DNA from: Salvator merianae
Lineage: Eukaryota > Chordata > Lepidosauria > Squamata > Teiidae
NCBI GenBank assembly: GCA_003586115.2
Contig: QVOM02000112.1
Location: 50,032,212-50,096,211, forward strand
Length of the DNA: 64,000 nucleotides
Direction: 5' to 3'
Positions 14,688-62,400 of the stretch are shown here, one piece after another. The number at the start of each line of letters is the position of its first letter. The first letter of the stretch is position 1. The notes under the pieces are model-generated. The model made no database searches. It saw only the letters and a program-made list of their open reading frames with translations, and was not told where the DNA came from. Made by a program: the position numbers and the translations under genes.

Positions 14688-14881
14688 AAAGACTCCTCAG
14701 AGGTCAAATCATCGGCTGAAAGTTTCCAGAGCTGCATTAAAGAAGGGCAGTCACATTTGCCAACTGAATGAAAGCAAAATGTTTTTATACAAGGAATAAC
14801 TGTAATCAGATTATGAAGTCCACAGGAATACACACACATGTGCACACACACAAATTAAATAAATCCTTTTTATTAAAACTA

Positions 14882-15024
14882 CTCTTCTTCTTCTCTTTCT
14901 TCTCTTTCTTCTTCTTCTTCTCCTTCTCCTTCTTCTTCTCCTTCTTCTTCTTCTTCTTCTTCTTCTTCTTCTCTTTCTTCTTCTTCTTCTTCTTCTCCTT
15001 CTCCTTCTCCTTCTCCTTCTCCTA
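14882..15024 (+). repeat. Polypyrimidine (CTT/CTC)n tract, about 140 bp
   Basis: An unbroken run of C and T in CTT and CTC units. Both strands show long low-complexity frames that are artefacts. Mirror symmetry makes triplex (H-DNA) formation possible. Confidence 0.95.
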
Positions 15025-16391
15025 CCTCTGGAAATTCATTAGTGATCATTTTATTTGCATGGTGACTTTGCATGGCTGAGGGCGGTTTTGAACTCTTGTT
15101 CCAAAATTTCAAACATTGTACTGCACTGTCTATTGTATACCTACGCTTGTAGCCTTTCTTGCATGCACAAATAGTGTAAAATGTAAGCATCTGCATGCAC
15201 ATACCTTGATAACTTAATCAAAAGAATTTCTCACAAATAATAAGAAACTATTTGCAATTCAATTCACAAATGATTTCATCATTTATCTTAACAAAACGAT
15301 TTTCTGTGTAAGGAAACATAATGCAGATGAATACATACTTTCAAGGCAATCCCTTCCCATATTCTCATCAAGATAAGTATTTGCTGCCCTCATGTGGTCC
15401 CATACTCCTTTTTTTTTTTTTAATGCTAACCATAGTTATGTTTAACTCATTCCAAAGGTTTAAAATAAATTGTAGAGATTGTAGAGAAATTCAGGCCACT
15501 CAATTATTCAGCTTCTGTATAGGAAAATATGTCTCCCAGCTCCTCGGACCTGCATGTATATTACATTTTAGATTTTTATGATGTATTTATTATACTTCCT
15601 TTTCATACTACAAAATCTAAGTGCTGGAGTACCAAACCCCTTTCTAAAAGCAGGGTACTGTATTTTGCATTTACACCCCTGCCTATCTTTCTAAGAATTC
15701 ATTGTCATGAATATAATTTTCCTCTCCACCTTACTTTCAAAACTCTGTGAGGTATATTACACCAGGAAGCATCGATGCAGAGTGTGCTTTGATGACTGGG
15801 TACAGATTTGAACTTGGATAATTCCACATCGGCCAGTATATTGGATGAGCAAGCATACTAGAAGTCTCTCTTCTACACACTGCTTCAGTTTAAGGCCCCA
15901 GATGGGATGTCTTCTAAGATTTGCAAAGGTAAAATGGGATGAAATACAATGGCCACTCCCAAAATTTAGAAGTTCCCAGAAAGGAGTAGACCCGATTAAG
16001 AGAAGGAACGGAAAACAATTCAATCTTCTTATGTTTCACTGGATTGTTGGTTCCCTTAACATTGAAAGAAATGATTTTTAGCTTAGATGTTTCCAGAGAG
16101 AAAGAGAAATACTAAAGACACTAGTAATATAACTACAACTTCTCTGGGTCACTATGGGAGTTAACAGAATAGAGGCTGGTTCTAAACACAAACAGTTTGA
16201 ACAAACCCACAAAAACCCTGTCTAGAGGAAAGGGAACCTCTTAGAGCCCTGAGAGACCCCAAAGAACATTATTCTACTTCCCTCAGAAGTGAACATTAGG
16301 AGTGAAAAAAAGCTAGACATCAAACTTTCATTATACTAGTGGGCTGATAAGCCATTTAAGTTGACAAAGTCTGTGTGAAAACCAAAACAAA
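15025..16391. other. Intergenic, no gene recognised
   Basis: AT-rich sequence with a poly-T run near 15410. No exon or bounded repeat is recognised. Confidence 0.5.
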
Positions 16392-31604: not shown

Positions 31605-33560
31605 TAGAATCATAGCACCTGTTCTCACTTTACAGCCTAGAATGACATAATAATATCATTCTAGGCTGTACAAGACCCCATGGTACAGTGGCCATCCACA
31701 CTGCAGGGACTTGAACAGCCCCATACTGGGCCTCCAGCACTCACAGTGTGGGTGACCAGCCCAGCTGCCATGACAGCAGCCACAACAACATCCGGCCATT
31801 GCCATGGCAATTGGGGATGTGACATGTGACTTCTAGGAATCTGGAAGAGGATGTAAATGCTGGTGACTGGGAGCAATCCAGCTGCACCCAGTCAAGTTGT
31901 AGACAACAATTTTGTTATCCAAGCTAGTAGCATCCAGGAGTGGCGGGAGATGCTCCTGGACGCTGCTACAGTGGGGCCATGCAGATGCACTTGTCCAGTG
32001 AACATCCAATTGGTCACTATCAGAAAGTGCGAACATGCCCATAGAGTTAGAAGGGACCTCCAAGGCCATCAAGTCTAACCTCCTGCTTAATGAAGTAATC
32101 ACTAAATCATCCCGGATAGTTGGCTAACCAGTCTCTGCTTGAAGATCTCCAGTGAAGGGGAACTTATAACTTCATAAGATAACTGATTGACAACTCCTAC
32201 TATTAGAAAGTTTTTTCTAATGTCTTAAGTTGTATCTCCTTCCCTGAAGTTTCATCTCATTGGTTCCAGTCCTGCCATCTGGGGCAAGTGAGAATAAGTC
32301 CAATTCCTCTATAGCATGACAGCCCAGATATCTGAAGACAGCTATCAAATTCCCCCCTCAGTCTTCTCTTCTGTAGGCTAAACAGATCTACTACTTTTAA
32401 GCATTCTTCAGAAGACTTAGTTTCCAGTTCTTTTACCATCTTGGTCAGTGTCCTCTGAATATGCTCCTGAGGCCTGACCAAGATAGAATAGAGTAGGATA
32501 ACTACCTCTCACGATCTACAATCTATGCTCCTCTTAATACATCCCAGGATAGTATTTGCCTTCTTTGTGGGTGAGTCACACTACTGGATCATGTTTAGCT
32601 CATGATCTACTATACACCCAAATCTTTTTCACAAATGTTCCTGCTAAGTGAGCTTTCTCCCATTCTGTATTTGTTCCTTTCATTTTTCCCTACCTAGATG
32701 CAGGGCTTTACATTTCTCCCCGTTAAATTTCATTTTGCTTGTTTCATCAAACTGTTCAAGTTTGACTAAATCTTTTTGAATCTTCTCCATCTCTTCCAAA
32801 GTATTAGCCACTCCTCCTACCTTTGTATCAACTGTGAATTTGATCAATGCACCCTCAACTTCATCATCCAGGTCACTTATAAAAATATTAAACAGTACCA
32901 GACCAAAGACTGGGCCCTGTGGAACCCCACTACAGACATTCATCCAGGGTGATATGAAGTCATTTATGACTACACTTTGTGTGCAATCATTGATCCAGTT
33001 ATGGATCCAATTAACATATATATCATCAATCCCGTATCTGATCGTCTTTTTAATCAGGATAGTAGGAGGAACTTCATTAAATGCCTTGCTGAGGTCAAGA
33101 TACATTATGTCCATGGCATTTTCTTGATCCATTCAGTTAGTGATTCTATCATAAAAGGAAATTAGATTAATCTGGCATGATTTATTTGTCACAAAACCAT
33201 ATTGGATCCCATTGATTAATGAATTTCTATTCAGGTACTCACAAATATACTATTTAATGATTTGCTATAGGACTTTGTCCAAGTATTGAGGTCAGGTACT
33301 CAAGCCTGTAATTTCCTGGGTCCTCCCTTTTTTCTTGTTTGAAGACAGGGAAAACATTTGCTGTTCTCCAGTCTTCCAGGAAGATTTTCAATGAATTCTC
33401 AACTAGTACAGCAAGTGGTTCCACAATTATTTCTATAAACTTCAACACCCTAGGTTGTAATTTATCTGGGCCTGGAGACTTGAGTCATTTAGTCTTGCTA
33501 AGCATTCCTAATCCTCAGTCCTCCTCTTCTCTCTGTGGCACAGCAATAATCAGCTGGAAT
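31605..33560 (-). pseudogene. CR1 LINE, 3' half, interrupted near its end
   Basis: The minus strand from about 33,560 encodes the pre-palm segment (WRTANVFPVFKQEKREDPGNYR), then MDIMYLDLSKAFNEVP and SGVPQGPVFGLVLFNIFISDL, typical CR1 reverse transcriptase. The catalytic FADD motif has decayed to FTVD (IKFTVDTKVGG), so the enzyme is dead. It continues into the CR1 3' region (reverse of GAGTTAGAAGGGACCTCCAA at 32044-32063), and its last bases (AGAATCATAG) lie beyond a family B MITE. Confidence 0.85.
31618..32040. mobile_element. Family B MITE inserted at the CR1 3' end
   Basis: Left ACCTGTTCTCACTTTACAGC, right TCAGAAAGTGCGAACATGCC. CATAG on both sides and the usual CR1 words (AATCATAG, then AGAGTTAGAAGG) allow the empty site to be read. 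Confidence 0.75.
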
Positions 33561-43639: not shown

Positions 43640-43745
43640 TTGAGAATGCCCAGAAGCAATTGGAGGGTCACTGTGTGAGACGGGATGCTGGACAAGATGG
43701 GTTGTGGCCTGATTCAACCAGGTTTCTCTTATGTTCTTATCCAAC
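43640..43745 (+). mobile_element. Retroelement 3' tail abutting the DNMT3L CpG island
   Basis: GCTTGAGAATGCCCAGAAGC, GATGCTGGACAAGATGGGTT and TCTCTTATGTTCTTAT are the plus-strand form of the tail seen at 5001-5110. Confidence 0.75.
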
Positions 43746-44420
43746 CGGGCAGCGAGGGGGCCAGCAGGGAACCCCAGAATACACGAAAGCGCGATATTCC
43801 TGCATTTCCACAACCACCGTCTGCTCTCTGCGTCCTCCTTCGTCGTTCTCACGGGTGGTTTCTCTCGATCCAGCGGCAGACGGGAGGCGCAGCAGAAGCG
43901 CGGCAATGATTGACGGCACGCGAAGGCGGAGGCAGCAGAATCTGACCGACCGCTCCTATTAGCATCTCTTATCTGCAGCTCCGGTGCGATAGTCAGCCAC
44001 GTGCCGGCTTCTCTTGTGTCTTGTGAGGAGCCCCGTTGCCAAGGCAACGCAGCTTCGACGGAACTCGGCCCCTCTGTTTTAGCTTGCCAAAACGCCGAAG
44101 GTCCAGAAAACAGCTGCGCTCCCACCCGCCGCTTCCCCGTTTTATTCGTCTCCTTCTGTTCGGGTAAATACGGTACGCGTCTTCCATGGTAGGCGGAGCT
44201 TGTTTTTCATCTGTGCAAAAAGTTAATTCATGGATCTCTTGCAGGAATTTTTCTGTCTTCTGGTTTCGCGTCTTCTCATCCCACTGCAACATCCCGGGAG
44301 AGCCGCCCGGGACGCGCCCTAAAAGCTCTTCGGAGCTTTGCGTTGATTTCATGGCCCAAGAAAATCCGCTTGTCGTGCTGGACAGCGACTCAGACGAGCA
44401 TGGAAGTCCCTGGCAGACAA
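43745..44420 (+). promoter_or_regulatory. DNMT3L: CpG-rich promoter and 5' end of DNMT3L
   Basis: The sequence changes sharply from CpG-poor to CpG-dense just after a retroelement tail that ends near 43745. CG dinucleotides are frequent up to exon 1, which is unlike anything else in the window. This is what a CpG-island promoter looks like. The transcription start cannot be fixed from sequence; a possible donor (GGGTAAAT near 44163) and a possible acceptor (CTTGCAG near 44244) leave room for a spliced 5' UTR. Long antisense frames here are a by-product of high GC. Confidence 0.7.
44351..44420 (+). CDS. DNMT3L: DNMT3L exon 1, start codon and first SIM-like motif
   Basis: The exon gives residues 1-23 and one base of codon 24. 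The start is the ATG at 44351, with G at +4 but a weak -3 base; the donor is ACAA|GTAAGT. The peptide carries PLVVLDSDSDEH at residues 6-17: a V-V-L core followed by alternating Asp and Ser, a close match to acidic, potentially CK2-phosphorylated SUMO-interacting motifs. An in-frame ATG at 44186 would add 55 residues; I prefer the downstream start because the added residues look like translated UTR and place Cys and Trp without a recognisable pattern. The intron is phase 1. No homologous N-terminus is obvious in mammalian DNMT3L beyond a short hydrophobic-acidic block, so the assignment rests on frame, splice sites and position in the CpG island. Confidence 0.72.
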
Positions 44421-47400
44421 GTAAGTGAGAGATGCCCCTGGGCATAGCATCTCCTATTACTTTGTAGCAGCCCTTGAAGAATTAAATGCCACGGCACGTG
44501 GAGGCACCTGATTCCAACCTGCCTGTCCTAACAAAATCAATCGAGGCACATGGGTTACATCCAGACTAACTGCGTGTCTACTCAGAAGTAAGCCCCACTG
44601 AGTTCAGTAGGGCTCATTCTCAGGAATGTGAGTAGGATGGAGTTTAAGTCATGAGCAGCCCAGCAGGACTTAAAATGTGGCTGACTCCTGCATTGATTTT
44701 CTAGGGATGGGAGTATAAGTTCAACCACTTTTGATTGAATTCAAACCATGAATTGAAACACTGACATGACTACAGTTTAATAGAATAATGAAATCTTGTG
44801 TGCACCTGATTGCCTCTGTCCCCAGGGTGAAATCAATACGGCAGTCATGAATACGGACACACAAAACTGAGTGCAGTAGAGTAAAATGTTTAACAGCTCC
44901 ATCCTAAACAGAGTATCTGAATCTAGGAGAACTTTCCCATTTGCTATTCACAGTAGCTGGACCGAGGGATTTACCTCCCTTTTTATTAAAAATGCAGGAA
45001 TTGCTCTCTGCCAGAAAAATCCAGCTGTTTCATAACCCTTGTTAATATGGTCATGTTAATATGACCAATCAGTGTTTGAGTAGGAAGCAGAGGTACATTG
45101 ACACGGGCTCTTCCAACAAAATGCTGCAACCAATGTTCACAGAGAGGGAGATGTCACAGGAAGACATCCTCTCTAGCAAATTCCATGCAGTATATGAAGA
45201 CTCCATATACTAGGTCAGGGAGTCCTTGCTTGTCCAGTCACAAGTCAATAGAATGTATAAGTTTTGTATAGAATGTGTCACTGCTGTAGCTAAGAACTGG
45301 AAGTTGACTGATGTAACTAAAAGGGCTCAGATGAAGACCTGGGAAATTATAGGCCTGTCAGCCTAACATCTGTTCCAAGGAAGAGAGTGGAAACTATTAT
45401 CCAGATAAAATCGCCAAATATTTAAAAGCACAAGTCAGCTTGCTCTAGTGTAGCAACATGTCTTCTAGAAGGTGAAGTCCTATCTGACTAAGCATCTACA
45501 ATTTTGGAGGTAAACATGTGGATAAAGATGATCCAGCAGACCGTTAACTACTTGGACTTTCAAATAGCTATTGATAAAGTCCCTCACCAAAGATGCCTCT
45601 CCCATGAGAGGGTGACCAAAACAGGCAAGAATCCAGACTGAAACAGGTCAAAGTCATTGGTTTCTTCCAAGAGTAACTACAACTGCATTGTCACCACCTC
45701 TTTTAGTTAATATCTTGCCCCCAGAAAAGCACATTTGTGATTCTCTGCAGTGGCTGAAATATACCTGAGTCCAGGAAGACTTTCAGAAATAGACAAATGT
45801 TACCTTTTTCCAAGATGGACAGTAGCCCACTATCCTACAACCTGGATTCATCCAGTCCCCAGAACTAGCTCTGATTTGTCTAGATGGGCAACAATGGGAA
45901 GGGAACTGCTGTAGGCCAGACAATTACAATCATCTTGTCCTCAACATCAGGCTTCCACCATTGAAAAACCTTTGTGGCTATCCTTGTAGCTATTGCAGAC
46001 ATATAAACGGAAGAAAGTGCAACAGCCAGGCCAGAGAGTGATACCCTGCCTTTCACCTATGTTATAATAAAATAAAACTTAGAATCTAATTTTATTTCCG
46101 AATTAAATTTTAATACCTTGTTCCTCTCTTCTGTTTAGTTCTCCTTTTTCAGTCTTAAGTGTTTTTATTATCCTATTTTATCTTTCACCATTTTATTGTT
46201 TTTTGTATTGTATTTTGGTGTTTGTCTTGTATACTATAGTGGAGAGCAGTGTAGAAATTCTATAAATAAATAAATATTACAGACCTGGAAGATCACTGAT
46301 ATCTTCTGAAGAGGTGCTGCTGTAGGTACCACAGATTAGTGAACATCATTTTACAGAGGCCTGCAGCAGGGCCTTCTCCGTGTTGATGCCTAACTTCTGG
46401 AGTGCTCTGCCTTCTGAAGTTCATGAGGCAGCCATGTAATGTCCCTTAGGTGCCCACTAAAGACTTACCTCTTCACCCAAGCGTTCCCAATGTGAATGTT
46501 TTCCTATTCCACCCAGTTTTTAATACTGTTTTTAAAAACTAGTTTTTAATGTTATAAATAGTTTAAAATTTGCTTTTGTCTTCATATTGTTACACTACTT
46601 GAGGATTTGAAGAAGTATGTAAAGGTTCTTAAATAAATAAATAACACATTGAATGAACAAATAAATTTATTACAGTCTCAGACCACAAGTATAAATAACA
46701 TGTTGAAATAAGTTCAGTCTGCAGAGTATACAGGCTGGAATATTTCACTTAGGCTATTTTCCAGGCCATTCAACTTTGCCAGATTATTTTAAATGGCCTG
46801 TGTAGCCCTCAGTTTTCTTATTTGTTTCTCTCTCCCTTTTTTTTCAGGATTAACTTCCAAGGGCAGACATTTTCCTGACATCATTTCTGTCAGTTCTGAT
46901 GAAGAAATGTCTGCTACAAGTGCTGTAACACTAAAAACAAGTAATTATTTTAAGAGCAGTTTAAAAATTAAGAGTGGTACATACATACACACACCAAGAG
47001 CACAATTCTGATGGAAGCGTTAAGGGCAAAACCACAGTGGAATTGTGACCCTCAGAAGGTCATAGGCAGCCTCCACATGGAGATGAGAGTATGGCAGTAG
47101 GCAGGTGGGAGGATGGGGGTCTTACCCTCAGAAGCATTGAAGCTAGGGAATGAAAGTTACCTGACCTCAATGTTTCTGGCCAGGGCCATGAAGGCTGCCT
47201 CTAGACAGCAAGAGGCAATGCAGGATCTAAACAAGATCCCACGGTGGCACGGTGGCGTAGACGCCTAAGGCACTGATCTTTCAATAGGAGGATCAGAGTT
47301 TGAGGCCCTTGTCTGCCGTGTAGAGGGGATGAGTGCCCTCTACTGACCTCTAGCTCCAGTCAACCTAGCTGTTCGAAAGCAAGTAATTGCAAGTAGATAA

Positions 47401-50400
47401 ATAGGGAGCATCACATTGCGTGATGCGGAAGATAGATGTAAGCCTTCAGGCAAAAAATAACCTTGTAAGCCGCTTTGAGTCAGCTTCGGCCAAGAAAAGC
47501 GGGGTATAAAAACCAAGTTCTTCTTCTTCTTCTTCTTCTTGACCTTTGTCACCCAGGCACAAGGAGCAACCCCTGGCTTACCTTCATGTCTGACCAGTAG
47601 CTTCCAGGTTTGGACCAACTGGGGCTACTGGAAGCCCGCCAAGCACCCACCCACTTCCTTTTGTTGTATTCTGCACATTTGGCTGCCTTCCAATAGCCCC
47701 ATTTGTGTCCATTGTGTAAGCTGCTCCACCGACGTAAAGGTAAGGAGGGATATTCTGGGAATCCTGGCATTAGTGCTGGGTTTTGCCTACTAGCGGCAAT
47801 CAGCATCTATTTGGACTGCCTTGGGTATCTCTAGCATTCTCAATATAATGCCAAGAGGATTGTGGTTTTTACCTTGCATCTGGAAGCAGCCTTAGTGAAG
47901 CCCAGAAAATGACCGGGGAAGTTGGCCATTTTCTGCACTTTGCTAAAGGGCCACTGGCAGACCAGACGATAGGTACATTACTGCAGCTGCCACCATCCAT
48001 TCACACAGCCACAATGAGGTGGGAGGATGGTAGAAGCTCTCTCTCCATGCTCTGCATGAAAAGTTCCGCTGACAGCACTTTCTGGCCCTTGATGATGGCC
48101 AGTGGGTGTAAGATCATGTGATCCCATGCTCTTTGGGCTTTCCCATGGTGCCATAAATTTGGTCCCTAATATCTCCAAGAAGTGACAAAAGAGGACTCTG
48201 AAGCACCACTACAGATCAGTATGATTAATGTTGAACTAGGTGGATCAATGGTCTGCTATAGTATAAAGCAAACCACTTAAGAGCATGTACTCTTAAGATG
48301 GTGTAAGGTCATCAGTAGGATTTATCAATAAAATGTGCTTTCTCAAAGATAATTTCCATGAGCAAAGCTTCAGTGAAAGACAAATACAGGATTGATTCTT
48401 CTAGCCCTTTACAAGTAAAACCGAGCACATTCACTGCATTTCAGGATTAGTTCTCTGTAATTTCTCTTTTAGATAAAATATAGTGGAATAGAACTGATTC
48501 CCATTTATAAACATGCAATTCAGTAGGGCTCACTTGAATTTCTGTATGCATGGCTGCGGTGCACCTCTGTGCAGTGAGGACCTCAGCATGGACACATACA
48601 TGACCCTCTTTTAGATAAAATATAGTGGAATAGAACTGATTCCCATTTATAAACATGTAATTCAGTACGGCTCACTTGAATTTCTGTATGCATGGCTGCA
48701 GTGCACCTCTGTGCAGTGAGGACCTCAGCATGGACACATACATGACCATACATGACCCATGGCATGAGTCCCTGGTACATCCCTTCCCACCAGAGGCCAG
48801 TGGGCTGCCTTCTTAAGGCTGAAGTAACAATACAGGACAGTCATAGGTCTGGACAGTTATGCCCAGTACTCATGCCATTCCTACACACTGCCTCCACTAG
48901 TGCACTCACTAAAGATACAGAACCACCAGAAGCAACCTGAAAATACCCACTATCAGGCCCATCATTTGAAGTAGCAGCTGCTACAGATGGGCGAAAGTTG
49001 AGTGTTGAGGGTAGGAAAGGGCCTAGCTTAGACCAACCCAGTGCTTCCTTCTCCATTGTTTTAGGCTGTGGTCTTTGCTGAGTGTTTAGGTAGGCTGGGC
49101 AGCTGTTGCTACTACCTTCTACCCCACAGAACATGTGAGGGCAAGAAGAACCCCCAGTTCCTTCCAAACTGTACCAAGAGTAGCCTGGACACCAATGTTT
49201 ATTCAGGTATCAAGCCTGGAGGAATCTTTTGAGGCTCCCAACAACCAGCAGGAGAACCCCAATCCTGTCCGGAATATGTTTCACTGCCCCTGGCCGGCAG
49301 CATACATATGACTATTAGTTGTGGAAGTCATATGCTTTCCCAGACCTGTCACAATTGTCCACCAATTTCAATGGGCGTCTCCACTAGCAGTAACTATGCA
49401 TCAAGCTCTCCTGACTATTCCATATTGCCAAACCATTTTACTCAGCATTGTATGGTTAAGCCATGTGGACCACATCCCACAGTACCCTAATGCATTCTTC
49501 TCATTCTCTCTCTTAGCTTTGTCATTTGAGGACAGAAGCTTTCCTGATATCATTTCTGTCAGTTCTGCGGAAGAATCAAAGCTTGCAAGATCCAGTACAA
49601 GTAATGATATTTTCAAGCAAAATTTAAAAGTTAGGTAACCGTAGCAACAAGATGTTCCCATAGTGCAGCTGAACATAAGTCCCTTTGGGAGTCTTAACAG
49701 AAGGATCATAACTTAGTAGTACAGCATCTGTGGTTTATGCAGATTGCCACAGGTTCGGTTCTTGGCATTTCTAGGTAAGACTAGTAGGATCTCTTCTGCC
49801 AGTCTTCATATACAACATTGACATAGATGGGCCACAAGACTCAAGAGTTAAACAGTGAATAGTGCTGGGATTTGTAGCTGTCATACATACCATATAGACT
49901 AGAACTCACATTCTACCTACCCACACAATTTTTCACTTAGACCCAGCTAGGCTGTTGGTTTTCAAAATCACAATTTTCACAGTCCCCAAATGAGATTATT
50001 CCAAAGCATCCACACTGATTTGCATTGAGAGGCCAATTCCGCATTCAAATCAATGTAGTTTTCAGGTGAGCAGATCAACTCAGTGCAGATTGATGAAGAT
50101 TTTGGTGGAAAACTGCACAATAACAAATAAAGGGGAGGTTGGAAATCACAATGGGTTATAATTTGTCAGTGCCACAATGGTGAAACTGTGCTGTCAGAAA
50201 CTGTGTAACTGTCATTTCACTGTTAGGTCATTATTTTTGAGAGGTGGAACACTCTTCTGCTGTAGCCCTCAAACAAAGCTACAGTTACAGTGAAATAACC
50301 AGCATCAGGAATATTCCCTTTGCAACTTTCATATTTTTATGTTCACTTTCCTGGTGCCATGAGCAGTATTCGACAGCAAATAAAATAGACAAAAGATCAG

Positions 50401-53400
50401 TGGCTGCACGTTTTGGAAATGTTATCTATGCTACAAAGGAGTGCAGAACCACAACAAGGATCATGGCAGAGGTATTCTTTACAGGATTTTTGTGAACAAT
50501 TCTTCTCTATCACTCTCCTTCGCAGTGATATCACTCTGCAATAGTTCTGCTGCACTTTCCCTAAGTTCTGTGGAAGAAGAAACAGTTCCTGCAGTCATTC
50601 CAAGATCAAGCAGAGGTAATTCTGTTTTCAGGAGGAATTAAGTACCCTTAAGGAATTTTTCAGCATGGTCAAATAAATACACACTGAAACTAACTATCAT
50701 TTAATCTTTTGTCTTCCTTTAACTGAGGTCAGAGAAGTGTTGTGATCTTCACAATAAGCCTAGGGCAGTGGCATCATCCACATGTTAGTTTCCAGCTGAC
50801 CTCTAGTGAGCCAGGAAGCAGACAGAACAATGGCTGTACTTCAGATGCAACCACCTGCCACCCCAGTTGATAAACTGCTTTAATGGTGCCCTGATGACCC
50901 AGAAGACTTCCAAGCTGGCCTTTGGTCAGTGAGGGAGCTTGTCTCTGTGAGCAGTGTTCCACTCACAGAGATAATCTGGGATGAGGGGACTCATCTCTCT
51001 GAGCAGAGATAATCTGCCTCTTCGCTGGCTCCTTCATTGAGTAGTTCTGTCCTGCAAAGGGCTTTATCTGGATGGAGCTAATGACTAGGGTTGTCCACGA
51101 ACTGAAATGTAGTGCTTCAGTCTGAATCAAACCAAACTACCCTCGGTTTGGTTCAAAGTGGTTTTTTTCAAACAACAGGGTGGTTCAGTTCACATGTGAA
51201 CCAAAAAAAACATAGCGAACCACCTTGGTTTGCTTGATTCATTAGACCACTTCTTGGTTTGGGTTCAGTTCAAACCAGGTTTTTCAAACAGGGTGATCCG
51301 TTTCGCATGAACCATGCGAACACCCCAGTTCACTGTGAACAGTGAGTCAGCCAAACCAGTTTGCTACCTCTTTACTAATGACTTGACTGGTGGCTCAAAA
51401 TAAACTAAACAGCAATATGGGTTGTGGTTAAAGTGCTGGTGTTTCCAAAGTCAAGCTGATTACTTCATCTTCCTGGTCCTGGAATCAGTTACAGACATTC
51501 CTTAGGTTCAGTCACAGCTTCCTTGCTGGGAGTTCTAGTGCCTAAGAGACAAACAAAAGTGTTTTCTGCATGGCCATTGCAGTGTATGGGATGCTTCTGA
51601 GAAAACTCCAGAAATGAACATCATTCTCTAATTTGTGTATAGACATAATATATGGATCATGGGTGGCAGCCAAAATCATACGCAATATAAAGGTCTGCCT
51701 AAACCTGCAGGAATCAAGCGATTTACCTTGCTGCATTGTGTTAATATCCTTATAGTTCAACTTTAAGCATCTGAAGTGTAAACTTCTTAATTTAGCAAGC
51801 AGTACTTCTTAATTCAGCAAGCAGTACATGTGTATGGTATAGAAATGTAGAACTTTTGGCCCCTGCATATTGTTGCAGTTCCTAGAATCTTGCTTAACTG
51901 AGATGAGCAATTTAAGGGAGTGATTTTAAATAAATAATTTAAATTATTCTTATTATTAAAGGTACAGTTATAGTGCTGGCCACGATAGCACCTGTATCCT
52001 GATTCCTGTTTGGCCAGGAAAATAGGGCAGTCCCGTCTGAAAAGAATAACAGGAAAAAAGTAATTAAACTAGCATTCCCTTAGGATGTCCACCCCATCCA
52101 ATCCACAACACCTTCAACATGCTCCAGTTCCAGGGTCATTGTCTGCCCAGTGGTTGTGGGCAGAAATTTAGTGGCTTCAAAACAGCTGCTATGGAAGTAC
52201 AGACTAACTTATGCCCACAGAAACTATTCTATTTGCAGTACCTTCTCTTGGTTTAGGTGTTTCTGTTTATTCTATTATGATCTCAGGCCACTGTAGGGCA
52301 TTTTAGCATTCCACTGTAAATCATTTAAGCAGAGATGCAGTCTTTGCACACATACTTGAGTAAAGGCCTACTGAACCACTGAAAATTCTGTGTAACTTGC
52401 AAAGGATTAGACATTTAAGATCTACATAGGGGTTTTTGTTGTTGTTGTTATTGTTACTCCACGTTGAATTTCAGCGGTGTCCACTAGCAATGTGCCAAAC
52501 CGCAGTTCACTGAAGTTCAAACTGCAGTTGGAGGTCTGGGACTTCATGTGGCAACTGCAGCTCTCTGTTGCACCTTTAGATGATGCCCAAGGAATCCTGG
52601 GAGCCGGGAATGTACCTACTTCCAAAAGTGTGGCTGCTACTACCACTGGGACTCCTCAAGGGTTGGACAAAGGTGCCATGGAGAGCTGGGGCTATCAGGT
52701 AAATCACCTGATACTCCCAGGCTTCTAACTGCAGTTTCTGCTTCAACAAACTGCAGTTTGGCATGTCTCTAGAGCCCATACAATCTAATCATAAGCTCTC
52801 TTCACTACAGGCTTTTACTAAGACATAGGCTGCATCTACACACAGTAAAAAAAAAAAAAAGGTGGCTTAAAAGCTACTTCGAGGTGGTAGCATCTGCACA
52901 CTAATGCCTCTAGTCCACATGAAAGGCCAGAAAATGCACTTGTAAAGGCCATTAATGTGGGTAGAAGTGGGCTGAGAACATTTGTGTCCACATGCTATCG
53001 CCTCTAAGCTGCTTCCAGTCCACTTTTTTGTGTTTGTAAATGTAGCCATAGGATGAATGTGGATAAGAGGGTGAGGGCTCTTTAAGGAAAGTGCCGGCCC
53101 CCTTTCACCTTAAAGTGAAGCAGTTTGTTTGCATTTTAAGTTGAATTGTCCATCTGTTCAGGCAAATGGCACAAGGGCTTTCCTCGCCGCCATTCAACAA
53201 GCGATTGCCTCCCCAGTGGATCAGATGTCGCATTACATCCAATCCTAGGGTGGATGGAAAACCCTCCTCCACTCTCATCCAGAGGGAAAACCCTCATCCC
53301 CTTACTGCAACTGGCTGTGCAGTGCCATCCGATCCAGTATGGCAGGGGAGCAAGCTTCCCTTGCCCATTCAACGGTGGTACCATTTGACAGGCAAGGAGA

Positions 53401-56400
53401 CGGGCTTCACTCACGTACTGTACTGAAGGAGGAATCCCTTCATTGAAATAGAAGGTGAGGCAAGGGTTATGTCCTTGAAAACAGAAAACCACAGTGATGA
53501 GGTTCACAGGGCTCTATGAACCTTTCAACGCACTCTGGTGTTAAAGCCCCACAACAAGCACTCGTAGTAGCGTAATAAAAGAAGACTATGGTGTCTGTTT
53601 TTTCTCCATTTTTGACAGTGCAATGAAGGTGCAGTGTCAGGCAGACACTGTACCCTCAGTGCACCATAATGGCACCATGCAGATTCAGCTATAGTTTCTT
53701 ATTTGTAGTTTTGCTCCACAAACAAGTATATTAAATGTCTTCTTCATTTCACCCATACAGTTATTGGGAGTTACAGTACTGAGGTGACCTCTGTAAGTTC
53801 CATTGAAGAATGGAACACACCAAAGTCAAGCAAAGGTAATTTCCTTTTCAGGAGCAATTAAAGCAGCCATCTGGATAAAGACTTGTCATATTACATGGTG
53901 AGGGCACACCATGGGGCAAGGACAGTCTAGACTTTCCCCACACTCTTTCTGTTGTTGTTGTCACTGGCAGCATGGTTAGTTGATGCTGTAGAGGGGAAAA
54001 TGTCCTGACATGCTCTAGAGCTGCTGACCAGATGGGCACAGCACCCAAGTAAGGGCATCTTAGAGCACTCAGCGGCTATGGGTGGAGGGAGAAGAAGAAG
54101 AATGAGGTCAGGGAGACTGAGTTAGCAGTTCCCCCTATGCTCCATGTTTTGGTTTTGACTTTGGAATTGCTGGAGAAGAATTTCAAAAACTAGTGGGAAC
54201 AGACTTTAAAACAGATGTTTGATATGGCTGAACATAGGCTGGACACAGGCTGAAAACTGACCAAATTATCCCTTCAGATGACTCTAAATAAAACATAGTG
54301 AAGTTCCATTTCATCTTAAGCTGCACAGTGTGCAGTAAGAACCAAACCTTTCATTACTTTCACACAGATACATGAACCAACTGAAGCTGCATCCAAACTT
54401 TGCTTACTTATTCCACTATATTTGGATATTCCAGAACAAAGCATGGATATTGAGGAATATCCATGCTTTATTCAGGCATATCCAAATATAATGGATAAGT
54501 AAATGGCATCTGAATACAGCTACAGACAGAGGCTGTGACCCTTTCTGCATACTATTCAATTTCCTGCATTGTGCTGGACCAATCCTGGCTGAGACCAAGT
54601 GATCTAGCCCAGGATCAGCTGGGCAGCCGGCAGCTGCACCAGAGGCAGTCCAACCTGTCCCAAATTCAGACGCTAGGAACAAAAGTCTGGCTTGGCTAGT
54701 TTAGCCAGGCATCCAGAAGTAGCCCACTTCCAGAGCAGCTCTCAGATGCCAAATGAAAAGTCTCCTTGGCTCCAGTAGGCCAGATCAGCTGCTCGTGTTC
54801 CATCCGCACACAAGCAGCTAATCTGGTATACCACACTACAACACTCCGTAGACTGCTTACAAGCAGTCTACTGGTGATAAGGGTTACAGCACCATTTTCA
54901 CGCCACATCCCAATCCAATGCCTCATGCAGGTACAGCGTTATACCAGGAGACATTGCCTCCCAGTAGACCAATGTGGAAGACAATGTGTCTCACAATAAA
55001 GACTTAGAGTAGGCATGTATAGGTTTGGTCTCTTAGCATTTCACAGCACAGAATAATTCCATAGAATAACCATAGAAACAGTTCTTGAAATAATTTTGAA
55101 TGCTCCTGGTGTCATTTGTTTATATATAATGAAAATTTCTAAATTCTGATATAATACAGGAGCTAAATGTATATTTTGATCAACTTAGAGAGACGTGAGA
55201 AGTATCTGGATTTTTTTTCTTTCTTTTAGGAAATATTGCATATCACATAAACTATGAACAGAAGAATATTGAAGGTGGGTTTTATTTATTTGTTGTTAGT
55301 GTTACTACAGCTTTTACAGATACTGTTATTGCTATAATTGTGTCCAATGACCAATCAGGCACCAATGCAGAGTTGGTCAGTCAGATCAATCCATTTAAAA
55401 CTGTTTTCTTGAGCAACAGATTTTTCAAAAATAATTTATATACACATACTAGATACACATATTTACCTTAAAAAATTACACATATCCTGTTATTCCAGAA
55501 GAGATGCTTCCTCTGTGATAGCATTTCAGAAATCTGAATGCAAGGCAAATGTGAAGAATGGTAATCCTGAATACATCATATTTAGGACTGATCAATTGAA
55601 ATGTATACTTCAAATGAAATGTTAAATGACAGCCCTAAATACAGTGGTAAGAACAGTAAGAACAGCAGATGGCGATGATGGTGTACTAATAAACCATTTA
55701 GCCCAATAAATAATCAGTTCCTTTTACTGTATCTATGGCCATTTATTTACAGGATTGTGCTTTCGTTTCTAGATCTGGTCACTAGGGCAGAACAGGTGTG
55801 TTTTTTTTAAAAAGATGGGTTTGCTTGGATCTCCAATTGTAGCAATAAAGGCTTTGGGCAATTCCATTCTTGATGGTATACCGGTCCAGTAAATGTACTA
55901 GGACTTCCTTCCCACATGCTGGTGCAGTCTAAGGGAAGCCCCGTCCCCTGTTATGATGCTCTGTTTGCACATGACAAAGCATAGACCAGATAAGGAGGCC
56001 CAAAATGGTGGGCTGGGCTGCTCGACCAGTAGACCTCTTTAAAAAGATCTACCATCGTTCTAGGGGATGGCACACTGGACCATGAAGGTATGCAGACGGC
56101 ACACATTTCTGGTCTGGTATACCAATGGACTCATTGCACTGGAGTAACAAGGCATGCTGCCACAGTGGGACCCCCAGGCCTTCAGAGCTTTTTTGGGGGG
56201 GGCATACCAACTTCAAAGCTGCTGTGAACTTCAGAGCTGGCATGGGGGGCTGGCACGGAACAAGCTGTCCCAATACATTTGGCCTTGTTTCACGTTAGGA
56301 GCATCCATCCTATCGAGGTCTGGTCTACTTGATCCAGAGTAATGAAAACAAGTGCAGAAAGAACCTTTGTTCACGGTTTGCTTTGCTGGAGCAGGATCAT

Positions 56401-59400
56401 GTTTAGAGCATCCAACAACATGTGTTATTGAGTTCAACAGAACACCATTTTTGGTTTGGTATAGTGGAAGAAATCAATTTGGTCCTGTCTATTTCCTTCC
56501 CCGCCACTCACTATCCATTCTGAAGTTAAACACACTGAGAATCTTTTGACCAAGTATAAGACCTTGTGCGTACATATTGCTCTGCTCACAGATCTCTGAA
56601 TTTGGAGAACTCAGTACTTCATAGGGTGGAGCAGCCCAGAATTATTTCATGAAAATATATGGAGCTTGGACTGCATTAACTTTTTGCTTAAAATCATACC
56701 AACGTTTTAAGAACTGCTGCTTTTATTTCCAAGCTATTAAAAATACATACATATGTATTTAGTGTTGCATGGTTTGTCACATCTCTGCATAATTGGTGTG
56801 GTGGGAAGTTTCAGTAGAATAGATTGTCTGAATTAATGAGATGGATTCTCTGTCTGTTTCAAGTCTCTTTCAGACTTATCTCAGATGACAGAATACCAAA
56901 TAAATTCAGTTCAACAATAAGTTTCTAGTGTGGATAGTGTGGGGCCTCTTTAACCCTTGTAATTGAATGGCTTAATGATTTCCATATCTACAAAAGCACA
57001 TGTTTGACCATCAATTTTAAAAACTGAATCCGAGTTTTTCAGATAATGATAAGGCATGGACCATAGAAATGAGTATTCTTGCCTTAAAAAAACCTGGAAA
57101 TTTCTGGTTGTAAAAAAATGTGCACTGTTCTTGTTTATATGAAAGAAAGTTACAACCCTTAGCCAAGGGAATTTTTTACTCTTCTTATGATTTGTTCAAA
57201 CAGAAAATAAAGGAAATTATAGAGAAAAATAGTGATTTTGTTTTCCATATGCTTTATTTTTATTTAACAGTATGTATTGTTTTGTGTAGTATTTGAACAA
57301 CTAATAAAGCATAATGTTTTTTAAAATTCCCAGGATTCTGAAAATTAAGCATTGTGTAAAATTAGTGTTTTCTGTCTTTTGTAGAAATCTGCATATGCTG
57401 CGGAAGTCTGGCAATTCACACCCAGCACCCTTTGTTTCACGGAGGAATATGTGCTCCATGTACAGTGAGTAACGGATCAGGGTTTTCACATACTCTACAC
57501 ATCTATGGCAGCCTTGGCACAGAAGCAAGAAATAAACGTTGAAGGGATGGGAGCACAGGTCCTACCCCAGAGGTGGGTGGCACACTATTCACTCGCCCTC
57601 GCAAAGCATGAAGCCAGGAACAAAGGTTCCCCAGATTTGAAGTTGCCTTCTGGGGTCATTTAATGAAGTACAGGAATGGCGCTGGAAGTTGGCCACTTTC
57701 TGCTTCTCACTTAATGGCCCGAGGCAGATGGCACAGCAAATAACTTGCAAATACTACTGCCATGCATCCACATGGTGACAATAGGGAGGAGGGCAAATGC
57801 CCTCAGTTGTTTTTTGTACTCTGCACAAAGGGTGCCTCTGAGGATGTTTGCCACCCTCCAGCAGCAGAATTTACTCACCATACCCCTCCGGCTTTTCCAC
57901 AGCACCTTTTTCACTCTGTGTAAATCCTGCCTGTGTTGAACTCTTTTTTCCTTCCATGTTATATTTGTTAGGCTTACCATATTCGATGGAGGCAACTTTT
58001 GTCCCATAATGATCAGAGATGCTAACCTCGGGAATTGCAAAGCCATTTGTGAGTGCTGCCCTCTGCATTCCAGGAACTTGGCAGATATTATTAGTGGTAG
58101 CTTTGTTGGTGGTGATACCCATTGGTCCAACTCGTGGCAGTGCAGGAGTAGCCAGTCGCCCTGTTAAATTATAAATACTGTGCATATTTTGGTCCAAACA
58201 AGGAAGTCGTTTTTTTAAAGAGAAAATTAAGAAAAATATCAATTTAAAAGATTAATGTATTATCAGACAACGTTACTGAAACAATAGTGCACCTATCTGA
58301 GAAATGCCAGAAGTATCTGCTTCAGTACTGCTGCTGCTATTATTATTATTATTATTATTAATTTTATTTCCACTCAGTAATTGGTTTCACTTACACTTCA
58401 GTAGCAAGTTTTGTCACAAGAAATGTAAGGTTTTTTCTTTTTGATTCACAATTTTTCTTGTAATAGTATAAAGGAGAATTGTTTCCTGGATCACTGATGC
58501 ATATTTACCTTAAACTGCTTTTAAGGTTCCTTAGGTATTATTATTGTTGCTGCTGCTACAACTTTTACTTAGCTTACTTTTAAAAAAAAAAATTAAAAAA
58601 ACTAAAAATATTTAAATAGATAACCTTTTTCAACAAGATACGCTAGCACTGGGCTATCAGCATATGTTTATACATTCCATTTTCACCCTCTCAAAACGAT
58701 TGTCAGTATTCAGTGCTTTCAGTAAACTTTTTAGAGTACTGTCCATGCCTGCTTGATATTAATTTCAATTTCCTTTTATTTTTAAAGGAAAGTTTGTTAG
58801 AGAGATTCTTCCTCTGTGAAGATGATGGTTTCCAAGCAATCTGTACAATCTGCTGTTGGGGCAATTCCCTTATGATGTGTGATGACCCAAAATGTCACAG
58901 GTGACACATAGCTAATCCTACAAGTAGATGTTCTAGACCAAAATTAGCTTACAGAAGGTTGGCTCCCGTTATTGTTATCCAGCCAATGATCACGGATGAT
59001 ACAATCTATTGACCAAAAATATCCACAGGGTATGCAAGTTCAAAGTAGCATTTTTGTACAATTTAAGTGCATGGAGCTTGATTCAGTGAGTGTTGAAACA
59101 AAACTCTGCTCAAAGTTTGTATAAAATATGTACATTCACTGTACTAACACACTATTGTGTTAAGAGTTTGCGGTACTTGTAGAGTAACATATGCCCAATA
59201 CATATATTCTATACTGGGGGAAGCTTCCTATGTCATATTCCATATGTATTGTGATTAACAGATGGCTGATAACCATAACTTTAAGAAGTAAGCAAGTGTT
59301 GCATAAAAAGTTGGAAGTGGTCTCTGGGTACCTTCTCCATTACAGATGTCCTAAAGTGAGGCAGACATTTTCTTGCTCAGGTAGCTGGTGTCCAAAGCAA

Positions 59401-62400
59401 GGTATTTCTCTGAGGCACACAAAAAAGCAGTACCAAAAAAGTCACCAGGGCTGCACTCACACCAGACTTCTATAATCCAGATTTTCTCCACATTAAGTGT
59501 GAGTCCCCGATCGGCTTGTTCACACACACACAAAATAATGCTCATCCATGCTGGTTTTTCTGTTTATACTTTAGTTCTCAGTCCTCTCCCAGCTTTTCTG
59601 CCAGTCTTGAAGAGTGACTCTGTCTGGTCCCTTCTTCTCTTCATAATTCCTGTCTTATTCCTAGCCTTCTTGCGTGCATATCCAGTTCTCCACTGACTCC
59701 TTTTCCTTTTGCTGCCAGCCAGGTGGAAGAAGCAACCTGGATCAAAATGGCATTTTTGCAAAGATACAGCTATTGTTTCCATTTTTGTTCACAAAAGACT
59801 TAAATACATTGTTTTTATTTGCTTTTTGAAAATCTACTATGATAATGAGCAATAGATCATTAAAGATGCAGAAACTACAAATATGATTACAAGAAAACTG
59901 TACACAGTTGTGACAATTCTGATAAGATCTTCATGGAATCTTAAGATTGCCATGGGATCACTCTGGATTCAGTCTCAGGATGTTTTGTTTTGGATGCACA
60001 AATGCTTTTAAAATCTGTTTTTATTTTGTTTTCTTTTTAAGAAACAGTCTGTATGTTTACCCCCCCTAAAACTGCATGACATTGGTAAGCATGTAACCCT
60101 TTCAAAGGGGATGAATACTATTGAAGCTTTTAAGAACGTTGTGAAGTTTTTCCTGTTTTTCTTGTATATCTCAATTGCCATGATTCCTTTTAGACAACCC
60201 TGGTTTAGCCTGGAACAATACTGAAGTATCCTATTTCAGCTCTAGCAAACAATTGGTCTTTCCAGAGATATCTGATTCATCTCAGGATTTGTTGAAATTC
60301 AGTTCTGATTACAGTCCTTAGTATAAAGTGTAACTGAAGGGTATTAGGAGAAGTAAGGAAGTATGAGCCACGATTTCTTCTATTTTTATGCTATCCAAAG
60401 TATAATTCTCAAACCAAGAACCTACTTTACTTTTTACTTTACTTTAATTTCAATTTCTGCCCCGCCCTATACCGAGGGGCCCCAGGGCGGCTTACAAAAA
60501 CATACCAAAAACAATTACAATAAAAACACCATAAAAATATTAGAATACTTCATAAAACATACAGAAAGCTTACAAAGCTTATAAAAACTATTACTTATTT
60601 CTCACAGTAGCAAAATCATCACATATCAAAAGTACGTGTGTCTTCAACAGGTACTTATATTGGAAGTTCTACTAGATTTACCCTCCCTTTGCATGATATC
60701 CAAAGCTACTTTGGTTGTGTGTGTAGTAAGAGAAATGTTAACGTGAATCTATTTGGATTTTTTTCAAATAACTGTGGGGAAAAGTGGCTCACATCCTCAA
60801 TAAATCCCATTTTTAATTTATGTAGGTGTTTTTGTGATGAATGTGTGGATTCCCTGATAAGCCCTGGATTTTCAGAGGAGATTAAAAAAACAGATCCTTG
60901 GATATGTTTCATGTGTGTGCCACTGGACGTGCATGGATTATTAAAAAGGAAGGTGAACTGGAATGTTGAATTGAAGCGTTTCTATGATCAAGAATCTGTA
61001 AGGAAAAATAGACTTGACTTTTACAAATGGAAAAAAGTTTGAAGTATTGCTTATTTTGTATTAAGTGACTTCATTTCTTATGGGATGTATTACACAGCAT
61101 TAGATTCTATTATTTCTTGATAAGGTGCCAGTCAGTAGTTTTTTTGTCTGTTGAAAGCTTGTTGATAGAAATTTGTTAGAAAAAGAACTAAATTAAAATA
61201 CGTGTTCCATTTCTAGCAGGCAGAACACTTCAGTAAATGAACTATAGCACAGCTGCTTGGAAAGCATTAAAAAAAATCAGCAGCTCCTTGTAGAGTAGCA
61301 TAAACATGCAGCTCACTTCTATCAGAGACTACTTAATTGCAATTTCTCAAAAGATACAGTTTTATTAGATGCCACAGTGTGGAACCCAATCAAAATTACA
61401 GCTGGGTTCCCTGACAGAAAAGTCCAAGTAGTTTATATTGATTAGCAACAATGGCTTGTTGCTTTAATAACGGGGGTTCACAAGCCGCAGGAAAGGGCAA
61501 TCGCTGGCTGCAAAACTATGCCCCTCCCTGGACAGGTCTTCCAGCGGTCACTGTGGAGGCCCCACGGCCAGTGATCGCCCCTTCCTGTGGCTTGCGAACC
61601 CTCATTCTTAAAGCGACGAGCCGTCGCTGTTGGTTAGTCCAACATATACCACGTATTCAACACAATGTAGAAACTTCTAACATAGAAAAAAAATAACATA
61701 AATTTCTTTGTAACAGCTTCTAACTTACTGACCTGCAAACTTTATTAATTCGCATCCTTTATCCAGAACTGAAAACATCCTTTGTTTTACAAATAGCAGA
61801 GATCCTACTTTGCTGGCATTTCTGCATTTGACAGGGCTAGGACAAGTTGGTCCAGCTAATCTGTTCCCACTGGAAAGGTTGCTAGCTGGAGCAGTCCAGC
61901 GGTCCCACAACAGGCTCTGTGCTGTGCCACTTTGAAGCTCACATGAGTGGAGCCTGCTGTGAGGACTCCAATGGCCAGGACCTAAAGGAACAATTTGGTG
62001 CACCACCAAAATGGGTCCCCCTGCTAAACTGGCCCATAGAGGTGTGCACCCTTTTGCACGCCTCCCTGGGCTGGTTCACTTGTGAGTAGACTCACAGTAG
62101 ACCTTTTTTTAAAGTCTGGTAGTGTGGAAGAGAGAGGCCTAGAAGGAGTCTAGGCTTCACACTATACTGGGTTACCAGTGGCCCTTTCTGCACTGGGCCT
62201 TATTTCAGATTATATCCTGGAATAAGAGCTTGCGTTCCACATGCTAGAGCAGATTACAGAAGGCCCCAGGCAGGTTCTGTGGTAGTTTGCTCCAACATGC
62301 AGACAGCTGTCCTCTATTCTGGGATATAACCTGGAATAACGCCCAGTGCAGAAGGGGCCAGTAAGTGTGGAAAGGCCCAAAGAGATTTACTACTGTAACT

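What the first reader, a model, noticed from the sequence alone, without database searches (positions are those of the whole stretch)
44351..53835. Reptile DNMT3L N-terminus looks like a tandem array of SUMO-interacting motifs
Seen: exons 1-5 each encode one block of hydrophobic core plus Ser plus acids: VVLDSDSDE, DIISVSSDEE, DIISVSSAEE, LSLSSVEEE, VTSVSSIEE. Known: SUMO-interacting motifs have a 3-4 residue Val/Ile/Leu core next to acidic or phosphorylatable Ser residues, and tandem copies bind poly-SUMO or multi-SUMO targets. Inferred: this DNMT3L may be drawn to SUMO-rich silencing complexes at transposons by avidity. The fit is strong in exons 1-3 and weaker in 4-5. Human DNMT3L as I recall it has one short VILVGSSE block in its N-terminus, which might be the single-copy relic. 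I know of no description of this array.
Basis: partly seen in the sequence, partly recalled or inferred. Interest (0 to 1): 0.9.

Follow-up and report, generated by a model that had tools for sequence, protein, structure and literature searches.

The report
Repeated SUMO-docking-like motifs in reptile DNMT3L
A squamate (lizard or snake) DNMT3L gene carries a string of short protein motifs, multiplied by copying one small exon, that look like docking sites for the small tag SUMO; a single-copy version sits at the same place in most of the mammal versions compared, so it may be an overlooked way of guiding DNA methylation to silenced transposons.

Summary
Exons 1-5 (44351-53835) are DNMT3L coding exons: they end in phase 1, join in frame to exon 6 and the ADD domain, and match annotated DNMT3L of other squamates. 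Exons 2-5 are tandem copies of one symmetric exon; exon 1 is not a copy of them. Exons 1-3 fit the published SUMO-interacting-motif (SIM) consensus (LVVL-DSDSD, IISV-SSDEE, IISV-SSAEE). Exons 4 and 5 have each lost one core residue (ALSL, VTSV) but keep S-S-x-E-E. The motif is not a reptile oddity: one core lies just before the ADD domain in 6 of 6 marsupial, 53 of 69 eutherian and 2 of 4 turtle/crocodile rows. In 18 other squamates the internal unit occurs 1-3 times; here 4 times. Strict SIM density in squamate N-termini is about 19 times that of the rest of the same proteins. Best explanation: a disordered, probably phospho-tunable SUMO-reading tail that helps bring DNMT3L to SUMOylated silencing complexes such as TRIM28. 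SUMO binding is untested here, and copies that lost the core kept the Ser/Glu part, which keeps a non-SUMO rival alive. No description was seen in the papers searched.

The parts
43741..44340 (+). CpG-rich stretch in front of exon 1, the likely promoter
   Evidence: GC 0.57, CpG observed/expected 1.05 against 0.20 for the window
44351..44420 (+). DNMT3L exon 1: start codon and block NPLVVLDSDSDE (intact SIM core LVVL)
   Evidence: Donor gtaagt, end phase 1; strict SIM hit; aligned to Pogona MAQEQPAVVVLLDTDSE, though weakly (E 4.1); exon-1 core strict in 17 of 21 species
46848..46940 (+). DNMT3L exon 2, repeat copy 1: FPDIISVSSDEE (intact core IISV)
   Evidence: profile E 2.5e-6; Zootoca E 0.001
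49517..49600 (+). DNMT3L exon 3, repeat copy 2: FPDIISVSSAEE (intact core IISV); closest duplicate of exon 2
   Evidence: Exon 2 against 3 z 16.7; 85% over 47 nt; profile E 5.7e-11
50526..50615 (+). DNMT3L exon 4, repeat copy 3: AALSLSSVEEE (core broken: ALSL)
   Evidence: Elgaria tblastn E 0.001; 3' intron flank similar to exon 5's, z 6.4; profile weak, E 3.1; not a strict hit
53761..53835 (+). DNMT3L exon 5, repeat copy 4: EVTSVSSIEE (core broken: VTSV)
   Evidence: Elgaria tblastn E 8.6e-4; profile E 1.6e-7; not a strict hit
55230..55274 (+). DNMT3L exon 6: NIAYHINYEQKNIE, start of the ADD module
   Evidence: Phases fit exons 5 and 7; Zootoca reads NIAYEVNFKERNIE; Pfam match extends over it
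57385..57464 (+). DNMT3L exon 7: GATA-like zinc finger of ADD
   Evidence: PF17980; 85-89% to DNMT3L over 26-27 residues
58788..58900 (+). DNMT3L exon 8: PHD finger part of ADD
60826..60997 (+). DNMT3L exon 9: rest of the PHD finger and what follows it
   Evidence: PF21255; 76% to Elgaria
63941..64000 (+). DNMT3L exon 10, cut by the window end; matches to the rest of the gene lie in the next 15 kb

Best explanation
The N-terminus of DNMT3L is a disordered tail carrying SUMO-interacting motifs: a hydrophobic strand ([VI]-[VI]-x-[VIL]) followed by phosphorylatable serines and acids, of the kind known in DAXX and PML. It most likely works as an added chromatin address: the ADD domain reads unmethylated H3K4, the MTase-like half holds DNMT3A/B, and the tail docks weakly on SUMO carried by silencing complexes (TRIM28/KAP1 first, also PRC1.6 or PML bodies), so that de novo methylation follows SUMO-marked repression. 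CK2-type phosphorylation of S-S-x-E-E would raise affinity. In squamates the exon encoding the motif was tandemly duplicated; here there are four copies plus the exon-1 motif, three of the five with intact cores. SHOWN: exons, duplication, orthology, conservation, fit to the consensus, predicted disorder in a relative. INFERRED: SUMO binding, phosphorylation, partner, role in transposon silencing.
For: Exons, phases and orthologue matches; matches to the MTase-like exons downstream. Consensus hhXh/hXhh with h = I, V, L, flanked by D/E/phospho-Ser, DAXX SIM IIVLSDSD, PML core VVVI (PMC8616421, passages); exons 1-3 match it. Strict hits: squamate N-termini 41 in 1,435 aa (2.86 per 100) against 8 in 5,218 aa (0.15) in the rest of the same 15 proteins; DNMT3A/B N-termini 3 hits in the 12 of 14 rows that could be read (about 3,265 aa), none within the last 140 residues before ADD. 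Core at the ADD-proximal place in 53 of 69 eutherian, 6 of 6 marsupial, 8 of 16 squamate, 2 of 4 turtle/crocodile and 1 of 2 amphibian rows, 21 residues before the anchor in all 6 marsupial rows, in 50 of the 53 eutherian rows and in the salamander-like row (which corrects). In 69 eutherian rows the motif columns average about 3.4 bits against 2.3 and 2.5 on either side (worked out). Residues 1-117 of Pogona DNMT3L have pLDDT below 50. Context: SETDB1 binds auto-SUMOylated TRIM28 through a SIM, and DNMT3L enhances DNMT3A-SETDB1 binding (PMC13108219, passages); DNMT3L interacts with TRIM28 (PMC12958612, passages); [quoted passage not shown]
Against: No SUMO-binding measurement and no complex model. 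Two of five cores are broken here; across 21 species 10 of 39 internal units are not strict, and all 10 keep S-x-E, including four snakes, which a pure SIM does not explain. SIM consensus is degenerate: shuffles of the window's own N-terminus reach three hits 2.75% of the time, and single rows are often not beyond shuffles (squamate 12 of 16, marsupial 3 of 6, eutherian 15 of 69, turtle/crocodile 0 of 4, amphibian 0 of 2 beyond 5%). Of 10 muroid rodent rows 9 lack the four-residue core (DVVLED type). A search of PDB sequences with exon 1 found no known SIM peptide (short query, little power). The disorder prediction comes from a model of low overall confidence (mean pLDDT 59).
Confidence: 0.55

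Rival explanations
1. The conserved part is a CK2-type phospho-acceptor cluster (S-S-x-E-E) that sets charge, stability or binding to another phospho-reader; the hydrophobic residues are secondary and SUMO is not the partner.
For: All 10 units with a broken core keep S-x-E, for example [DE]IST-[ST]SVEE in Crotalus, Pantherophis, Naja and Candoia. In 38 aligned units the second Ser (35) and first Glu (37) are the steadiest acceptor-side residues.
Against: As a class the core is about as steady: aliphatic V/I/L in 31, 36 and 34 of 38 at its three positions, while the first Ser (29) and second Glu (28) are looser; and the units were picked with a pattern that favours Ser/Glu. Mammals vary the serine side (GSSE, DSSE, EDSKE) while most eutherian rows keep the core. 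Exon 1 has a long aliphatic core in 17 of 21 species.
Confidence: 0.2
2. The motif is a strand-forming docking site for one folded partner other than SUMO (for example a piRNA-pathway or HDAC-complex subunit).
For: The pattern is tighter than a generic SIM: D-[VI]-I-S-[VL]-S-S-x-E-E, with the third core residue Ser in 35 of 38 units. The piRNA pathway recruits DNMT3L and involves further factors such as C19ORF84 (PMC7618676, passage).
Against: Tightness partly reflects common descent of duplicated exons. Mammal forms (DVISLDSSE, DVILVGSSE, DVIVVGSSE) vary at the third core position and beside the core.
Confidence: 0.15
3. The multiplicity is neutral: one ancestral motif matters, and symmetric phase 1-1 exons were copied and lost without effect in a disordered tail.
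For: Copy number ranges from 1 to 4 internal units while strict cores in the whole N-terminus number 1-3 in all 21 species; 10 of 39 units are broken.
Against: The exon-1 core is strict in 17 of 21 species and an intact internal unit is present in 20 of 21. In this window exons 2 and 3 keep the core (1 amino-acid difference in 12 codons) while 5 of the 6 codons just upstream changed; but nucleotides are conserved too, so recent copying or splicing constraint could also do that.
Confidence: 0.4
4. Exons 2-5 are gene-prediction artefacts or skipped in mRNA.
For: No transcript was seen; several annotated models skip units or exon 6 (Anolis isoform P0007, Candoia P0016, Tiliqua P0008).
Against: Annotated proteins of 18 other squamates contain at least one such unit, splice signals and phases fit, and the unit is shared with a turtle and a crocodile. 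These annotations may lean on one another.
Confidence: 0.05

Closest known systems
SUMO-interacting motifs of DAXX (IIVLSDSD) and PML (VVVI plus Ser/acid)
   Same: Four-residue aliphatic core followed at once by serines and acids, phosphorylatable in both; exon 1 (LVVL-DSDSD) is nearly the DAXX pattern.
   Different: In DNMT3L the internal motif is an exon-sized, tandemly duplicated unit with a nearly fixed Ser inside the core; SUMO binding has not been shown.
Multi-SIM readers (ZMYM2; RNF4 recalled)
   Same: Several SIM-like cores in one protein, linked to repression of germline genes and transposons (ZMYM2, PMC10415128).
   Different: DNMT3L is the DNA-methylation adaptor itself; only 1-3 strict cores per protein in 21 species, with copies made by exon duplication.
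Mammalian DNMT3L
   Same: Same gene and ADD domain; one motif (DVILVGSSE, DVISLDSSE) just before the ADD module.
   Different: Single internal copy in most eutherian rows (marsupials have a second core, IVVV-LDEE, upstream); 9 of 10 muroid rows have a shortened or broken core.
SETDB1 N-terminal SIM
   Same: A SIM that brings a silencing enzyme to auto-SUMOylated TRIM28 (PMC13108219).
   Different: SETDB1's SIM is established in the literature; DNMT3L's is a prediction from sequence.

Membership tests
DNMT3L | ADD domain of DNMT3 type | tested here: met
   PF17980 4.5e-22 and PF21255 4.1e-22; nearest PDB sequences are DNMT3L
DNMT3L | No PWWP domain before ADD | tested here: met
   No PWWP match in the 294-residue model
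DNMT3L | MTase-like half without the catalytic PC motif | tested here: met
   Exon downstream of the window reads FGSTPP, as do the three squamate DNMT3L queries; the DNMT3A motif with PC is recalled
DNMT3L | Groups with DNMT3L of squamates in a tree | tested here: met
   ADD tree of 25 rows: inside squamates (100/100), 75% identical to Elgaria; place inside squamates unresolved; no DNMT3A/B rows were in the tree
SUMO-interacting motif | Core of four residues, hhXh or hXhh, h = V/I/L | tested here: met
   Exons 1, 2, 3
SUMO-interacting motif | Same core in exons 4 and 5 | tested here: not met
   ALSL and VTSV
SUMO-interacting motif | Adjacent acids or phosphorylatable serines | tested here: met
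   All five blocks: DSDSD, SSDEE, SSAEE, SSVEE, SSIEE (read from the translation)
SUMO-interacting motif | Exposed, disordered setting | tested here: met
   AlphaFold2 of Pogona DNMT3L: residues 1-117 pLDDT below 50, whole model mean 59; not the window's own protein
SUMO-interacting motif | Binds the groove of SUMO, lost on core mutation | not testable with these tools
   No complex prediction or assay available
Tandem exon duplication | Copies similar in exon and intron flank, symmetric phase | tested here: met
   Exons 2-5: exon 2/3 z 16.7, 3' flank 4/5 z 6.4, 2/3 z 3.5; other exon pairs among 2-5 z 1.8 to 3.3; exon 1 not similar (z at most 1.8)

The most novel reading that the evidence does not exclude
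DNMT3L is a SUMO reader in most tetrapods that have it: an ancestral SIM next to the ADD domain lets the methylation adaptor read 'unmethylated H3K4 plus SUMO' together, giving SUMO-based silencing (KRAB/TRIM28, PRC1.6, germline complexes) a direct hand-over to de novo DNA methylation; squamates increased the number of copies by exon duplication, and muroid rodents, where DNMT3L has mostly been studied (recalled), have the weakest form.
Probability: 0.3. Interest if true: 0.85.

Novelty: new variant of a known kind. Interest (0 to 1): 0.58.

Why it matters
How de novo methylation is led to the right transposons is a long-standing question, and DNMT3L is a key adaptor in it. A conserved SUMO-docking tail would give a short, mutable, testable address and would link two silencing systems that act at the same places. 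It also makes a sharp prediction in primates: the 8-9 residues around DVILVGSSE, upstream of the folded domains, should bind SUMO.

Tried and rejected
Wrong exon 6 (55504-55560) in my first gene model, used in the first protein search, Pfam and PDB searches; replaced by 55230-55274 after comparison with orthologues. Exon 1 as a fifth copy: rejected, no DNA similarity. A missed further repeat exon: none found; the next profile hits have E above 1. The motif inherited from DNMT3A/B: no strict hit within the last 140 residues before ADD in 12 readable rows, some with shorter N-termini (2 of 14 rows had no anchor). A SIM peptide match in PDB by sequence: none. RNA family matches in the window: none at gathering score. 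A DNMT3L retrocopy in the same genome that would prove splicing: the search did not complete. Kao et al. 2014 on DNMT3L-TRIM28 could not be read. The exon 2/3 comparison in one species cannot separate protein selection from recent copying, so it is not used as proof.

Corrections made on checking: one search gave 56 of 69 eutherian and 9 of 16 squamate rows with the core; one search printed each hit and showed that three eutherian (P0055, P0076, P0079) and one squamate (P0015) hits lie elsewhere, so the counts are 53 and 8.

Rows left out of counts: of 161 proteins found (one search listed the best 120 of 169), 15 DNMT3A/B-type rows were set aside; of 147 DNMT3L rows (window included) 39 had no readable anchor and 11 had under 28 residues upstream, leaving 97. 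Some rows are isoforms or fused gene models, and 90% clustering hides species. The per-row shuffle counts look anywhere in the last 130 residues and include hits away from the motif site. The 21-species unit table was cut by hand and includes rows the anchor had dropped. Its column counts were made on 38 units picked by a permissive motif pattern, so they lean towards the motif.
Full report
WHAT IS THERE. The window holds the 5' part of a DNMT3L gene on the + strand. Ten exons were placed (44351 to the window end), with splice signals and matching phases, giving 294 residues. The ADD domain is clear (PF17980 4.5e-22, PF21255 4.1e-22), and the nearest PDB sequences are DNMT3L. The next stretches of the same contig carry tblastn matches to the remainder (Zootoca residues 214-417 of 418), in order, out to 78836 in window coordinates, with FGSTPP in place of a catalytic PC motif; these exons were not assembled. 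In an ADD tree of 25 rows the gene lies among squamates (100/100), nearest Elgaria at 75% identity, unresolved beyond that. DNMT3L in reptiles is already known: PMC7814119 reports it in many reptiles, and PMC7618676 throughout tetrapods except birds, frogs and platypus (passages).

THE REPEAT. Exons 2-5 are 93, 84, 90 and 75 nt, all phase 1 to phase 1, so any number can be added or lost without breaking the frame. Exon 2 and exon 3 are close duplicates (z 16.7 against shuffles; 85% over 47 nt), and the intron start after exon 4 resembles that after exon 5 (z 6.4); other pairs are weaker, and exon 1 resembles none. A profile of 19 units from other species found exons 3, 5 and 2 as the top three of 2,852 six-frame pieces and placed exon 4 only sixth (E 3.1); Elgaria DNMT3L supports exon 4 separately (E 0.001).

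COMPARISON. Three protein searches gave 161 proteins. Hand-cut units of 21 species (19 squamates with the window, a turtle, a crocodile): exon 1 carries a strict core in 17 of 21 (Zootoca, turtle and crocodile have a three-residue VVL or LVL; the Rhineura model lacks exon 1). Internal units number 4 in the window, 3 in Pogona and Sceloporus, 1-2 in the others. Of 39 internal units 29 have a strict core. Strict cores per protein are 1-3 in all 21, and the window has 3: more copies have not meant more intact cores.

At the place just before the ADD module the core is present in 53 of 69 eutherian rows (DVILVGSSE type), 6 of 6 marsupial rows (DVISLDSSE type), 2 of 4 turtle/crocodile rows (the other two models lack the unit), 8 of 16 squamate rows and 1 of 2 amphibian rows (correcting). 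In mammals the spacing is almost fixed: the core starts 21 residues before the IAYEV anchor in 50 of the 53 eutherian rows with it, in all 6 marsupials, and also in the salamander-like contig P0099 (SDVVLVEVS). Two caecilian rows read NVMFVDSS and DVLFVGTS. So the site probably predates amniotes, on little evidence. Of the 16 eutherian rows without the strict core, 9 are muroid rodents (DVVLED type; 9 of the 10 muroid rows examined; which rows are muroid is my knowledge).

IS IT MORE THAN CHANCE? Strict SIM pattern (hhXh or hXhh with three of five D/E/S beside it, one at least acidic): window 3 hits against 0.63 in shuffles, reached by 2.75% of 400; squamates mean 2.75 against 0.59, 12 of 16 rows beyond 5%; eutherians 1.09 against 0.22, 15 of 69; marsupials 2.5 against 0.84, 3 of 6; turtle/crocodile 0.75 against 0.27, 0 of 4; amphibians 1.0 against 0.4, 0 of 2. 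Rows are related, so these are not independent. As controls, squamate N-termini hold 41 hits in 1,435 residues, the rest of the same 15 proteins (folded, of other composition) 8 in 5,218, and DNMT3A/B N-termini 3 in 12 readable rows, none near the ADD domain. Single-protein statistics are modest; the survival of the same core at the same spacing is the stronger argument.

DOES IT FIT A SIM? The published consensus is a four-residue core hXhh or hhXh with acids or phosphoserines on one side; DAXX has IIVLSDSD, phosphorylated by casein kinase II with up to 30-fold gain for SUMO1 (PMC8616421, passages). CK2 is named as a kinase for several SIMs and the motif is described as loose (PMC12751080, passages). 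Exons 1-3 fit; exons 4-5 do not fit strictly. AlphaFold2 leaves residues 1-117 of Pogona DNMT3L below pLDDT 50 (whole-model mean 59), as a linear motif needs.

MECHANISM. Most likely the tail adds a SUMO address to DNMT3L. SETDB1 binds the SUMOylated bromodomain of TRIM28 by its SIM, and DNMT3L enhances DNMT3A-SETDB1 binding (PMC13108219). DNMT3L interacts with TRIM28 to recruit HDAC1, SETDB1 and DNMT3A (PMC12958612). ZMYM2 binds SUMO2 by SIMs, sits at TRIM28 and PRC1.6 sites and is needed for transposon methylation; [quoted passage not shown] The passages I read in these papers mention no SIM in DNMT3L. Against a pure SIM reading: all 10 units with a broken core keep S-x-E, including the last unit of four snakes, although as a class core and acceptor positions are about equally steady across the 38 units aligned.

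NOVELTY. Searches for DNMT3L with reptile (28 papers, 27 listed), with 'SUMO-interacting motif' (8), with TRIM28 and SUMO (33, 25 listed), with N-terminal, SUMO and lizard (3), with squamate (1), with N-terminal/disordered terms (3), and DNMT3 with 'SUMO-interacting motif' and de novo methylation (2) gave no listed title or abstract opening, and no passage I read, that describes such a motif in DNMT3L (passages in PMC9254654, PMC7618676, PMC7814119, PMC10415128, PMC7472088, PMC12958612, PMC13108219, PMC6316769). The library holds open-licence papers only, so this is not proof of absence. I rate it a new variant of a known kind: a SIM-like array, in a protein not known for one, made by exon duplication.

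Noticed in passing
48464-48747: A 142-base unit is present twice head to tail (98% alike) inside intron 2, between exons 2 and 3.
   Followed up: no
32680-33129 (-): A piece of a reverse transcriptase (RVT_1, 1.9e-12), probably an old LINE fragment.
   Followed up: partly
14879-15095: A long simple tract that reads as poly-Ser/Leu on one strand and poly-Glu on the other and gives weak spurious hits to the Ser-rich repeat units.
   Followed up: no
47219-47520: Looks like a squamate SINE with a short TTC tract at its end, in intron 2; recognised by eye and from memory, not by a call.
   Followed up: no
P0124 (Pantherophis guttatus model): The snake gene model fuses DNMT3L with an Ig-domain protein, ICOSLG-like by my recollection; its tail gave no match in the window or in the 15 kb after this gene.
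   Followed up: partly
marsupial and eutherian DNMT3L N-termini (P0026-P0031, P0036 and others): A second SIM-like core lies about 10 residues upstream of the conserved one: EIVVVLDEE or EIVVVLEEE in the six marsupial rows, EIILDPEAE in several eutherian rows.
   Followed up: partly
mammal DNMT3L rows: The core keeps an almost fixed distance of 21 residues to the IAYEV anchor, which suggests that the spacer length to the ADD domain matters.
   Followed up: partly
P0146 (lungfish DNMT3B-like): Its N-terminus contains FIDLVEEEDS, another SIM-like stretch outside DNMT3L.
   Followed up: no
55230-55274: Exon 6 reads IAYHI where most of the relatives printed read I-x-[YH]-E-[VI].
   Followed up: no
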